This document shows, piece by piece, positions 13,446-24,170 of a DNA stretch of 29,628 nucleotides. A program made the translations under genes and the position numbers. The notes under the pieces are model-generated. The model worked only from the letters and a program-made list of their open reading frames with translations. It did no database searches and was not told the DNA's origin. How positions within the stretch are numbered: position 1 is the first letter of the stretch; each line of letters begins with the position of its first letter. The stretch comes from a virus: positions 1-29,628 of the IMG/VR virus record IMGVR_UViG_3300028490_000021; one strand, given 5' to 3'.

Positions 13446-13477
13446 TAAAAAACTGATTAATTTACAAAATTACCAGT
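13446..13477 (-). terminator. Probable intrinsic terminator at the terminase stop codon
   Basis: On the minus strand ACTG-G-TAATTT pairs with AAATTA-AT-CAGT around a TGT loop, followed by a run of T and then ATATC. The stem holds the last terminase codons and the stop. It is AT-rich with a small internal loop, so efficiency is uncertain. Confidence 0.5.
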
Positions 13478-15406
13478 TGTACCTTCACCGAATATATGTG
13501 AGAACGGATCATCGTCTTCCCAATCAGTCCCAACTGCTTCACTAAGTTCATCAATGAATTTCTTGTTCATGTATGGTTTGTACTCCACCTTTGTACCCAT
13601 TATCCATAAAGCATTACACACAGCATCGGCGATATCCTTAGATCCTGGAGTTCCGTCTTGATTATGATCAGGGTGATCAATTTTCTTATCATTTTCCTTC
13701 AAGAATACTATTTCTTTATATAGAATACTGTTAGAAGGCATTTTAATCCTTCTTTCTAAAATTGCGTCTCTGAAGGCTATATATGCATCCTTCTTTCTAT
13801 CGACTGAATTCATAATTGTTTTAATTCCACCCTTTTCCAAGAGTTGTAGAGTATCAGTAGATTGAAAACTATCAGATACAACATATTCAATACCAATTCC
13901 CATACGTTGGAGTTCGAAAATGAAATCCCTAATTTGATATAGTTGAAGTTTTTCACCTTTCGGTGGTCTTATTCCTATTGAAAAATCTACCCAATACTCA
14001 TATTCCTTTAATTCACTATCACCAACAGTATCATGTATGTGAATCATAGAAAGTCCATATCTATCGCCAGCATACGCAATATCCAGCCCAATAACTTTCT
14101 GACTTCCTGGAAGGAAACCATCAATTCGTTCTTTATCGAAATAGTCTATTAATTTACTGTCTTTATCCAATATAACTTCATCCAATCCAATACTACTTTG
14201 TAATATCATTGCTTCATTTATTTTCTCTTTAAATGGTATGAAGGTTCTGACATCAGAAACTGCTAGACCAAGTACATCCCTAATACCAGCATAAATATCA
14301 TCGAATTCTTTCCTATGTTCTATTGGAACTTCGTGAATTTTTGTTCTGTCGTATGAAGTTGCTCGTATCAGATCATTATCACTTTCTATAAAGAATGGAT
14401 CCGATTGATAATCACCAATGAACACCTTAAATGTAACCCCTGAATAATTTATCTTATGTTTCAGAATTTCGAATCTTGGTGCTGAAACAACCAATATATC
14501 TTTTTTGGAGAAATCAGTATTTTCATCAGTATCTTGGGCGTTGTCTATCATATTCTGAATTAAAGACCCCTCAGTCGTCGCTGATGATATCATCGTGTAC
14601 ATTCCTGGCCATTTGTTACCATCCAATAAGAAACGTGAATTTATTCTATTATACATCTCTGTAATGATATTTTTGGAACCACCACGTTGTATTTCTTGGT
14701 TTACTTCATCCGAAGAAGCTGAGTACACGTTTTTACCGACTAATTGGTGTTTTCTTGATACCATATTAATATCTATGTTATTCACGAATAACGATGATCT
14801 GGATTTTGTGTTATTAAACTTTGATCTAAAGAAAGGTGATTCTCGCACCAATGAAATTACTGGATCATAATTTACTTGCTCAACATTTTCAATAGTTGAG
14901 TTTGTTAGTGTGAAAAATATCTTAGCTGATTTTGGTAGTTTAAATTTTATTTGGGGTTCATCTAAACACAATAACCTACAAAGGTCATATAGAAATATAA
15001 TAGATGCAATTGTGGTATTGTGGTGAATACTCCCATCTGGAGTACAATAAAGGTGTGGTGCTGGTAATGAAAAATCATACACGGTCTGGTTTTCGATATA
15101 AGTACTGTTGATTACTCTATTACTTTTGTTGGATATGTTATCGATACTCACTGCATCTTTTATCAAAACCTCTTCACCGTTTTGTATAACTATATGAGAG
15201 TCAGCTACTTCTAGTGTATACCCACTTTCTAATTCATATTCAAATACATCAGCCTTCTTGGTTACAAGTTTTTCTATCTGAGTGTACCCATCTGGGGATT
15301 TTATGTATAAATCACAAGGAGTATCGTGTACTTGTTCATCGTCACCAGTGTGAACAATTCCAAGTTTGTCATATAATACACCTATTGGTATTTTAATATT
15401 TTTCAT
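13457..15406 (-). CDS. C-intein plus C-terminal part of terminase large subunit (TerL)
   Basis: A 649-residue precursor. Residues 1-130 are a C-intein ending VYDFSLPAPHLYCTPDGSIHHN (the ADSH block-B-like site is near residue 70; the HHN terminus is the splice junction), followed by Thr131 as the +1 residue. Residues 131-649 are the C-terminal terminase: the rest of the P-loop (TT), a Walker-B-like SSDE (232-234), the coupling motif SSAT (274-277), and an RNase-H-type nuclease with likely metal ligands Asp442 (GLDIAYAGDRYG), Asp512 (VVSDSFQSTD) and Asp591 (GSKDIADAVCNAL). After trans-splicing with the product of 15682-16047 the mature enzyme would be about 613 residues, close to T4 gp17 (610). 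AAGGA lies before the ATG, which directly follows the stop of the wedge ORF. Confidence 0.92.
   Translation of the reverse strand: MKNIKIPIGVLYDKLGIVHTGDDEQVHDTPCDLYIKSPDGYTQIEKLVTKKADVFEYELESGYTLEVADSHIVIQNGEEVLIKDAVSIDNISNKSNRVINSTYIENQTVYDFSLPAPHLYCTPDGSIHHNTTIASIIFLYDLCRLLCLDEPQIKFKLPKSAKIFFTLTNSTIENVEQVNYDPVISLVRESPFFRSKFNNTKSRSSLFVNNIDINMVSRKHQLVGKNVYSASSDEVNQEIQRGGSKNIITEMYNRINSRFLLDGNKWPGMYTMISSATTEGSLIQNMIDNAQDTDENTDFSKKDILVVSAPRFEILKHKINYSGVTFKVFIGDYQSDPFFIESDNDLIRATSYDRTKIHEVPIEHRKEFDDIYAGIRDVLGLAVSDVRTFIPFKEKINEAMILQSSIGLDEVILDKDSKLIDYFDKERIDGFLPGSQKVIGLDIAYAGDRYGLSMIHIHDTVGDSELKEYEYWVDFSIGIRPPKGEKLQLYQIRDFIFELQRMGIGIEYVVSDSFQSTDTLQLLEKGGIKTIMNSVDRKKDAYIAFRDAILERRIKMPSNSILYKEIVFLKENDKKIDHPDHNQDGTPGSKDIADAVCNALWIMGTKVEYKPYMNKKFIDELSEAVGTDWEDDDPFSHIFGEGTTGNFVN
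15017..15406 (-). other. C-terminal half of a split intein (130 residues)
   Basis: It encodes MKNIKIPIGVLYDKLG... through SIHHN. Intein features are DLYIKSPDGYTQIEKLV (resembling the region after block A), GYTLEVADSHIV as a block-B-like His site (A where Thr is usual), VYDFSLPAPHLYCTPDG as block F, and HHN at the splice junction. There is no homing endonuclease domain. Confidence 0.9.
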
Positions 15407-15682
15407 TTAGTCCTTCAAATCCAATTTAGTTCCACCAAAAATCTTTGAGTGGGTTCGACCAATTTCTTTAGTCGAATTCATTTTTTCCTTTTTGAACATC
15501 GTATTAGATATTCCAGGTTCAGTGTTTGTGTAAGCATTCTTTTGGTAAAAATCACTTAACACCTGAGTTGTATCTTTATTTGCGTTATAAGTTTCAGACT
15601 CATATAAAGTCTCTGTAAAGAGAGAATTTTTATTCACTGAAACCAATGAAGATTTCAGAGTAAGTACTGGAAGGCTCCGCAT
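15407..15682 (-). CDS. Unknown 91-residue ORF wedged between the split-intein genes
   Basis: A 91-residue protein rich in Ser, Thr, Asn and Lys (begins MRSLPVLTLKSSLVSVNKNS, ends SKIFGGTKLDLKD). It shows no intein, endonuclease, membrane or zinc-binding motif that I can see. Its ATG overlaps the stop of the N-terminal terminase gene (TAATG), with AGAGGA about 12 bases upstream, and its stop directly precedes the C-terminal gene's ATG. Fractured split-intein loci often carry a homing endonuclease between the halves; this one is too short and lacks such motifs. It could be an independent packaging or virion gene, or a remnant of the event that broke the terminase gene. Function unknown. Confidence 0.65.
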   Translation of the reverse strand: MRSLPVLTLKSSLVSVNKNSLFTETLYESETYNANKDTTQVLSDFYQKNAYTNTEPGISNTMFKKEKMNSTKEIGRTHSKIFGGTKLDLKD

Positions 15683-16047
15683 TAAGTCACATATTCCTCT
15701 AAACCATATTTCTCTATATCCTCATCAGACATCTTAAATTCAAGTTGTTGATTGAATCCATTACATTTACCAATACCCGTTGCCCCTGATAATAGTACAA
15801 CTTTGTATTTGTTGGTTTCATAAAACGGTGTTGGGTAAATATCTACTAATTGTTTCTTCCAAAATGGGAAAACTGAATTTCCCGTATCTAGAGAACCACC
15901 AAGATAATATTCATTTGTTAAAAATTCCTGAATTGTTGGTGGGGTTTGTGTGTACCCACCAGACTGAGCCATAAGGTCATATAAATGCTTTAGATCATTG
16001 TTTTTTAAATTCGAAACAACTTCATCATTTAAAGCATAAGCAGACAT
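15682..16047 (-). CDS. N-terminal part of terminase large subunit plus N-intein
   Basis: A 121-residue precursor. Residues 1-94 are the N-terminal part of the terminase: a helical adaptor region, then LGGSLDTGNSVFPFWKKQLVDIYP (adenine-side segment) and YKVVLLSGATGIGK, which is the Walker A loop up to its lysine. Residues 95-121 begin with Cys95 (CNGFNQQLEF) and form a very short N-intein, then stop. The reading frame then shifts to an unrelated ORF, and the rest of intein and terminase is encoded from 15406. Without splicing this protein has an incomplete P-loop. AGAGGA lies six bases before the ATG. Confidence 0.9.
   Translation of the reverse strand: MSAYALNDEVVSNLKNNDLKHLYDLMAQSGGYTQTPPTIQEFLTNEYYLGGSLDTGNSVFPFWKKQLVDIYPTPFYETNKYKVVLLSGATGIGKCNGFNQQLEFKMSDEDIEKYGLEEYVT
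15685..15765 (-). other. N-terminal half of a split intein (27 residues)
   Basis: It encodes Cys95-Thr121 of the N-terminal terminase precursor. The catalytic Cys1 directly follows GATGIGK. Canonical split inteins have N-halves near 100 residues; 27 matches the atypically split class known from AceL-TerL (25 residues). Together with the 130-residue C-half it makes a 157-residue mini-intein. Confidence 0.88.
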
Positions 16048-23610: not shown

Positions 23611-23642
23611 ATTTTATCTCGTTTAAATTAATACTAACTTAA
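23611..23642 (-). promoter_or_regulatory. Weaker middle/early-type promoter: TTAAG, TTAAT, TAAAAT
   Basis: Minus strand: TTAAG at 23642-23638, TTAAT 11 bp later, TAAAAT at 23616-23611, in the same spacing as the site at 18.4 kb. It begins in the last codons of the RNA 2'-phosphotransferase gene and would start the hairpin leader of the primase-helicase gene. Confidence 0.5.
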
Positions 23643-24170
23643 AATGTATTTAGTGTCCACATAATCAGTTAGCCATACGCCATTTTCTGATTTATAGAAT
23701 TTAATCCCATCGGAAATCATTGCTTCAGTATCGATTGTTAATAGGATGTTTTTGGTATCTCTTCTTGAAGCTACTTGAATAGCAGTTTCTTTATCTTCTG
23801 AAAGGTGTACGTGATGTCTTGACATTTTCTTAATGCCATCAATCTTAATCCATTGCCAAAACTTTTCTACAGTACCGTGATATAATCTTGTTGGTGGTAA
23901 TACCTCATCAAGTTGTAGATCAATTTTAACTGAGTGACCTTGATTAGCTCTGATCTTAGTACCAAGGACGCCAGTGTTATTGAATGAAAACCTACCTTTG
24001 GAATCTGACTTAACAATAAGCCCCAATTCTTCACGTGTTAGACCAATACCCTTGAGGACGTCCTCGATGTCAGCCCAAGCTCCTTCACCCAATGTTATAC
24101 CAAATTCTTGAGGAGCATGTCTGAGTGCGTATGTGAGTGCTCTACCCTTTGTCTTAAGTGATTGTGTCAT
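23634..24170 (-). CDS. kptA: RNA 2'-phosphotransferase (KptA/Tpt1 family)
   Basis: A 178-residue protein of normal family length with all key motifs. Arg17-His18 lie in ALRHAP, Arg74 in KIRANQGHS (the family's RANQGHS signature), LYHGT (96-100), RHHVHLSED (118-126), ASRRD (134-138, probable second phosphate-binding Arg) and GVWLTDYV near the C-terminus. Tpt1/KptA enzymes transfer an internal RNA 2'-phosphate to NAD+, giving ADP-ribose 1'',2''-cyclic phosphate and nicotinamide. In eukaryotes this finishes tRNA splicing; the bacterial and phage role is unclear, perhaps RNA repair after nuclease attack. No RNA ligase or kinase is in this window. AAGGA precedes the ATG, which overlaps the stop of the 55-residue gene. 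Confidence 0.93.
   Translation of the reverse strand: MTQSLKTKGRALTYALRHAPQEFGITLGEGAWADIEDVLKGIGLTREELGLIVKSDSKGRFSFNNTGVLGTKIRANQGHSVKIDLQLDEVLPPTRLYHGTVEKFWQWIKIDGIKKMSRHHVHLSEDKETAIQVASRRDTKNILLTIDTEAMISDGIKFYKSENGVWLTDYVDTKYILS

What the first reader, a model, noticed from the sequence alone, without database searches (positions are those of the whole stretch)
15017..16047. Terminase split inside its P-loop by a split mini-intein with a 27-residue N-half
Seen: one gene ends GATGIGK|CNGFNQQ... and stops after 27 intein residues; a later gene opens with a 130-residue C-intein ending SIHHN|TT and continues as the terminase. Joining the exteins restores GATGIGKTT. Established: split inteins trans-splice, and the AceL-TerL class has a similarly short N-half. 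Inference: this is an active, naturally split intein, and DNA packaging depends on trans-splicing. Mini-inteins with such short N-halves are rare, and a terminase interrupted at the catalytic lysine-threonine junction ties splicing to motor activity.
Basis: partly seen in the sequence, partly recalled or inferred. Interest (0 to 1): 0.92.

Follow-up and report, generated by a model that had tools for sequence, protein, structure and literature searches.

The report
Phage packaging motor with split intein
A bacterial-virus gene for the DNA-packaging motor is cut in two, with a small self-splicing protein element (intein) divided between the two gene products so that they can be stitched together after translation; at least a dozen related viruses carry versions of it while others have the uncut gene, so it is a mobile, naturally split intein with an unusually short first piece.

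Summary
On the minus strand, a 121-aa ORF (16047-15682) ends GATGIGK|C...(27 aa)-stop, and a 649-aa ORF (15406-13457) starts with a 130-aa IntC ending SIHHN|T and continues as TerL. Eight environmental relatives have the uninterrupted P-loop, which fixes both splice junctions. IntC matches solved inteins by sequence and fold. It is no assembly error: 13 contigs carry a homologous IntC at the same K|T site, eight of them with both halves, 0.1-3.4 kb apart. Four contigs have a clear homing endonuclease gene in the gap. IntN is always 26-32 aa and ends in a conserved acidic tail. Unlike AceL-TerL (split after helix 1, S2), the break lies before helix 1 (S1, as in VidaL and PolB16). Mobility shows in patchy presence, intein/extein tree conflict, and a near-identical phage pair with and without the intein whose divergence is confined to 200 bp beside the site (co-conversion). 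The K|T P-loop is a classic intein site. Splicing itself is inferred, not shown. New variant of a known kind.

The parts
15766..16047 (-). TerL N-extein (94 aa), ends at P-loop ...LLSGATGIGK
   Evidence: 59-67% identical to contiguous TerL N-termini of L002/L003
15685..15765 (-). IntN, 27 aa, Cys1, conserved acidic tail SDEDIEKYGLEEYVT, then TAA (15682-15684)
15407..15682 (-). 91-aa ORF of unknown function in the gap; homologues found only directly upstream of IntC in L008, L009, L010
15017..15406 (-). IntC, 130 aa: block B His71, block F D111/H118, block G H129-N130
13457..15016 (-). TerL C-extein (519 aa), starts at P-loop Thr+1 (TTIASIIF), remainder of the terminase

Best explanation
This is a naturally split class-1 mini-intein (27 + 130 aa) inserted between the Walker-A Lys and Thr of a phage large terminase. 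The halves are two separate genes of one operon. After translation the short IntN docks into the nearly complete IntC and restores the Hint fold. Cys1 takes up the N-extein as a thioester, Thr+1 attacks to form the branched ester, Asn130 cyclises with help from His129, and the exteins join as GATGIGK-TT, giving a working ATP-binding loop. The break lies in the loop between the N-terminal beta hairpin and the first helix (S1). The element belongs to a homing-type mobile family (fractured genes); in this window the endonuclease gene is absent and only a small companion ORF is in the gap. Shown: sequence anatomy, homology, predicted fold, empty sites, mobility signatures of the family. Inferred: the splicing reaction in infected cells and dependence of packaging on it.
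For: Both junctions coincide with uninterrupted alleles in eight relatives. Profile hits to solved inteins at E=5e-9, including CatC 6dsl at 0.0095. The IntC model (pLDDT 78) matches intein structures including VidaL and Cat. Block B His and terminal HN are invariant across the aligned IntC. IntN length and tail are conserved in 8 N-halves. Purifying selection on both halves in the L057/L059 pair: dN/dS 0.09 and 0.11. Ribosome-binding-like sequences precede the N-half and C-half starts. The contiguous homologue in LR756508 aligns end to end across the break. No Rfam intron in the window. Mobility.
Against: No proteomic or biochemical evidence. Window IntN begins C-N-G rather than the C-L-x of the other IntN, and the Thr of the block B TxxH motif is Ala; both are mild departures. 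The record is a 29.6-kb fragment, so a second intact TerL elsewhere in the genome is not excluded. One relative (L051) has a frameshifted N-half, so some copies may be decayed or misassembled. No relative is close enough for an unsaturated dN/dS test of the window copy itself.
Confidence: 0.87

Rival explanations
1. An interrupted, decayed copy: the halves no longer splice and TerL is non-functional here or supplied by another gene.
For: The record is a fragment; L051 shows that frameshifted N-halves exist.
Against: Open frames, start signals and catalytic residues are all intact; TerL lies in a conserved topo II-TerL-portal-like-protease-capsid order; the only TerL in the record is this one; the family evolves under purifying selection where it can be measured.
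Confidence: 0.08
2. An RNA-level intron (such as the terL intron of phage ICP1) joins the two exons, and the reading as intein halves is coincidental.
For: terL of ICP1 is split by an intron with a nearby homing endonuclease gene (PMC10448857).
Against: No Rfam family matches the window up to E=0.1; the flanks code for intein halves conserved as protein, with invariant Cys1 and terminal His-Asn; IntN ends at a stop at nearly the same residue in every relative.
Confidence: 0.02
3. An assembly or sequencing error splits a normal contiguous intein or gene.
For: Metagenome contig; one relative has a local frameshift.
Against: The halves lie in different frames with a 275-nt gap and a conserved ORF between them; the same split recurs in many contigs with different gap contents.
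Confidence: 0.01

Closest known systems
AceL-TerL / GOS-TerL / Cat atypically split inteins (phage terminase)
   Same: Split with a short IntN (25, 37, 30 aa); natural members named for terL; metagenomic source
   Different: Those are split at S2, after helix 1, with IntC 104-115 aa (PMC13014065; PMC11766414); here the break is before helix 1 and IntC keeps that helix (130 aa). +1 residue Cys there, Thr here. Sequence match to CatC only marginal (E=0.0095).
VidaL and PolB16 OarG atypically split inteins
   Same: S1 split after beta2, very short IntN (16 and 15 aa) (PMC13014065)
   Different: IntN here is longer (26-32 aa) because of a conserved acidic tail after beta2; no significant sequence match to VidaL (E=1); PolB16 uses Ser1/Ser+1 and another host gene (PMC10189870).
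TerL1-a contiguous inteins of mycobacteriophages; TerL inteins of Vibrio phage Kuja and Salmonella phage CRW-SP2
   Same: Insertion between P-loop Lys and Thr of TerL
   Different: Those are one continuous protein (PMC5050341).
Fractured-gene split inteins (for example AceL NrdHF)
   Same: Two host-gene halves separated by free-standing ORFs, often a homing endonuclease (PMC7891396)
   Different: AceL NrdHF has the typical split site with a 98-aa IntN; here S1. The window copy has no endonuclease, only a 91-aa ORF.
Vibrio phage vB_VmeM-32 gp41-type helicase
   Same: 27-aa IntN, homing-type ORF in the gap, IntC 34% identical to the window's
   Different: Different host gene and P-loop position; not annotated as a split intein in the record.

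Membership tests
Class 1 intein (Hint fold) | Cys/Ser at position 1 | tested here: met
   Cys1 in window and in all 8 IntN
Class 1 intein (Hint fold) | Block B His; C-terminal His-Asn; Cys/Ser/Thr at +1 | tested here: met
   H71, H129, N130 and T131 in window; H71, H129 and N130 invariant in the aligned IntC
Class 1 intein (Hint fold) | Sequence and fold match to solved inteins | tested here: met
   Profile E=5e-9; Foldseek matches of the predicted IntC to RadA, gp41-1, VidaL and Cat inteins
Class 1 intein (Hint fold) | Catalyses splicing | not testable with these tools
   Needs co-expression or mass spectrometry
Naturally split intein | Intein halves on separate genes, not joinable by read-through | tested here: met
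   749-nt insert, different frames, 91-aa ORF between; same kind of arrangement in relatives
AceL-TerL type (S2 atypical split) | Split after helix 1 | tested here: not met
   IntC model keeps helix 8-14; CatC aligns from profile position 53, while IntC here starts about position 28
S1 atypical split (VidaL/PolB16 position) | Split after beta2, before helix 1 | tested here: met
   Alignment with contiguous LR756508 intein and DSSP of the IntC model; works like that type, sequence kinship to VidaL not shown
Mobile fractured-gene intein | Homing endonuclease gene in the gap | tested here: not met
   Absent in window; present in L009, L056, L059 (PHROG 3339, E<=2e-89) and L058 (85% identical to L056's); weak nuclease-like ORF in L011
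Mobile fractured-gene intein | Signs of homing | tested here: met
   Empty sites, tree conflict, and a 200-bp diverged tract at the site in L013 vs L053; met for the family, not for the window copy by itself

The most novel reading that the evidence does not exclude
The 91-aa ORF in the gap is a dedicated partner of the split intein, helping the two precursors assemble, controlling splicing, or aiding homing, so that a terminase split intein travels with its own helper gene.
Probability: 0.1. Interest if true: 0.8.

Novelty: new variant of a known kind. Interest (0 to 1): 0.52.

Why it matters
It adds a natural, conserved family of terminase inteins split at the S1 position with a 26-32 aa N-piece. 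Split inteins with such short N-pieces are few and are sought as protein-labelling tools. The family also carries a clean record of how split inteins spread: occupied and empty alleles in near-identical phages, endonuclease gain or loss between close relatives, and a co-conversion footprint. It suggests that a packaging motor is made as two inactive pieces in several phage lineages, and points to a cultured phage (Vibrio phage vB_VmeM-32) with a 27-aa IntN in its helicase where splicing could be tested directly.

Tried and rejected
Pfam and PHROGs did not recognise the N-half, the intein or the 91-aa ORF. The 91-aa ORF has no match in phages, no PHROG match below E=0.1, and its AlphaFold model is of low confidence (pLDDT 54), so no fold was searched. 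Tblastn matches of RHph_TM39, phiLo and EP_H11 starting upstream of the C-extein looked like intein matches, but those TerLs are uninterrupted. A scan with the IntN alignment brought two extra contigs (L065, L066) that are unrelated proteins matching the tail by chance. Genome contigs gave no relative and plasmids no match. Charge pairing between IntN and IntC as an assembly rule was tested and dropped: IntN is always acidic, but IntC ranges from -11 to +7. dN/dS for the window against its nearest relatives is at or near saturation and was not used.

Full report
WHAT IS THERE. All features are on the minus strand. An ORF of 121 aa (16047-15682) begins as the N-terminus of a phage large terminase and reaches the Walker A motif...LLSGATGIGK. 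It continues with 27 residues, CNGFNQQLEFKMSDEDIEKYGLEEYVT, and stops. Its stop codon overlaps the start of a 91-aa ORF (15682-15407; TTAATG), which abuts a 649-aa ORF (15406-13457). That ORF starts with 130 residues ending SIHHN and continues TTIASIIFLYDL... as the rest of TerL. The insert between exteins is 749 nt, not a multiple of three, and the N-half frame is full of stops beyond its end, so a single sequencing slip cannot rejoin the gene. AAGGA precedes the C-half start and GAGG the N-half start at ordinary distances.

WHY IT IS AN INTEIN AND WHERE ITS ENDS ARE. Relatives in IMG/VR carry the same gene without interruption: L002 and L003 (72% and 68% identical) read LLSGATGIGKTTVASII and FSGATGIGKSTIASVM, and six more contigs are empty at the same place (L047-L050, L053, L054). 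This fixes the junctions at K|C and N|T. The C-half matches a DnaE intein by sequence (7qil, E=2.7e-4), the joined intein E=4e-5, and the family profile E=5e-9 to solved inteins, with the terminase-derived consensus intein CatC at 0.0095. A model of IntC built from 12 relatives (mean pLDDT 78) matches RadA, gp41-1, VidaL and Cat inteins in the PDB and terminase inteins among viral models. Cys1, the block B His, the block F Asp, and the C-terminal His-Asn are kept.

THE SPLIT POSITION. The contiguous homologue in the clamp-loader-like gene of jumbo phage LR756508 aligns end to end with the joined halves, and the break falls in the loop after CLGYSEMVDVKI and before RELRLPVGRLFELLGI. In the IntC model the first element is the helix at residues 8-14, so IntN contributes only the N-terminal beta hairpin. 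CatC, split after that helix, aligns only from profile position 53, whereas IntC here starts near 28. The literature places AceL-TerL and GOS-TerL at S2 and VidaL and PolB16 at S1, with natural short IntN of 15-37 aa (PMC13014065; lengths also in PMC11766414). This intein is therefore S1-type. Its IntN is longer than those of VidaL and PolB16 because of a tail, roughly [SN][ED]EDI[KE]xxxLE[ED][YF], present in all eight N-halves and absent from the contiguous relative. A second contiguous P-loop mini-intein in another ATPase of the L049 phage (L060) also lacks the tail. That the tail helps the halves meet is inference.

THE FAMILY. Thirteen contigs carry a homologous IntC at this site. Both halves are on the contig in the window, L009, L011, L012, L056, L057, L059 and, with a frameshift in the N-half, L051. 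Only IntC is visible in L008, L010, L013, L014 and L058, where the contig ends before a N-half is reached. The gap measures 106 nt in L012, 275 in the window, 756 in L057, 923 in L011, and 2.4-3.4 kb in L056, L059 and L009. Homing endonucleases of PHROG 3339 lie in the gap of L009, L056 and L059 (E from 2e-89 to 3e-102) and, by 85% identity to that of L056, in L058; a weak nuclease-like ORF lies in L011. L057 and L059 are about 89% identical in DNA but only L059 has the endonuclease.

MOBILITY. On a TerL tree the split and empty states need at least five changes, and four are forced by well supported branches. The IntC tree groups the window with L008 (98/96), while the extein tree groups it with L009 (95/93). 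L011 and L009 share 63% of IntC but 36% of the extein. L013 (occupied) and L053 (empty) are 98.65% identical over 4.9 kb starting exactly at the insertion site; 25 of the 38 differences in the extein lie in the first 200 nt (12.5% against 0.9% beyond, Fisher p=9e-15). That is the expected trace of homing with co-conversion. For L013 the upstream part is off the contig, so the nuclease involved is not seen.

THE COMPANION ORF. The 91-aa ORF has homologues only directly upstream of IntC in L008 (46-48% identical), L010 and L009. It was not found in the empty-site contigs, including one of 155 kb, nor in the second split clade, nor in named phages. Its closest homologue is in L008, as is the closest intein, so the two may travel together. 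It has no known family and no reliable fold. The other clade has different gap ORFs (211 aa in L057/L059, about 255 aa in L056/L058), so some of these may simply be cargo.

MECHANISM. Inferred from established class-1 intein chemistry: IntN docks into IntC, Cys1 thioester, transfer to Thr+1, Asn130 cyclisation, ester-to-amide shift, product GATGIGKTT. Neither precursor has a whole P-loop, so ATP-driven packaging should wait for splicing. Selection on the intein is purifying in the pair where it can be measured best (L057/L059: IntN 0.09, IntC 0.11). No RNA intron model matches the window.

SETTING. The window is a whole 29.6-kb IMG/VR virus record. Around TerL lie type II topoisomerase subunits, a 500-aa ORF in the place of the portal, a head maturation protease, a gp23-like capsid protein and a tail sheath, the order seen in Rhizobium phage RHph_TM39 for TerL to capsid. 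It is a T4-superfamily-like myovirus; its host is not known.

NOVELTY. Known already: short natural IntN, S1 splits, fractured genes with homing endonucleases, and inteins at the TerL Lys|Thr site, which PMC5050341 calls a classic P-loop insertion. New here, as far as the tools reach: an S1-split family in TerL with a conserved IntN tail, its co-conversion record, and the companion ORF. The original fractured-gene and GOS-TerL papers were not in the library, so prior mention of such sequences cannot be fully excluded.

Noticed in passing
L016 (Vibrio phage vB_VmeM-32), 2083-5158: gp41-type helicase split by an apparently unannotated S1-type intein: 27-aa IntN (CFVAGEEIEVEMNEQTHQEYLRFKNEN), homing-type ORF, then IntC ending IHHN|TGKS. 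A cultured phage for testing.
   Followed up: partly
L031 (contig 62975-62805 of IMGVR_UViG_3300005095_000179): A 56-aa ORF behind the homing endonuclease ends ...SVNGILKIVYSMSDEDIEKYELSEYMED, a second IntN-like piece without Cys1 or TerL N-extein; possibly a leftover of a second intein copy.
   Followed up: no
L060 (contig of L049), 643-2565: Contiguous mini-intein in the P-loop (GMAGIGK|C...HHN|TF) of another ATPase in a phage whose TerL site is empty.
   Followed up: no
L061 (contig of L048), 64-2109: UvsX/RecA-like gene with an intein interrupted by an endonuclease-like stretch and in-frame stops; split or decayed copy.
   Followed up: no
window 23634-24170 (-): RNA 2'-phosphotransferase (Tpt1/KptA family, Pfam E=1e-45) encoded among the phage genes.
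   Followed up: no
L057 3820-3920 and L059 2127-2215, 3815-3920: The homing endonuclease in L059 sits between two copies of a similar AT-rich leader (about 60 nt); L057 has one copy, as expected for loss or gain by recombination between repeats.
   Followed up: partly
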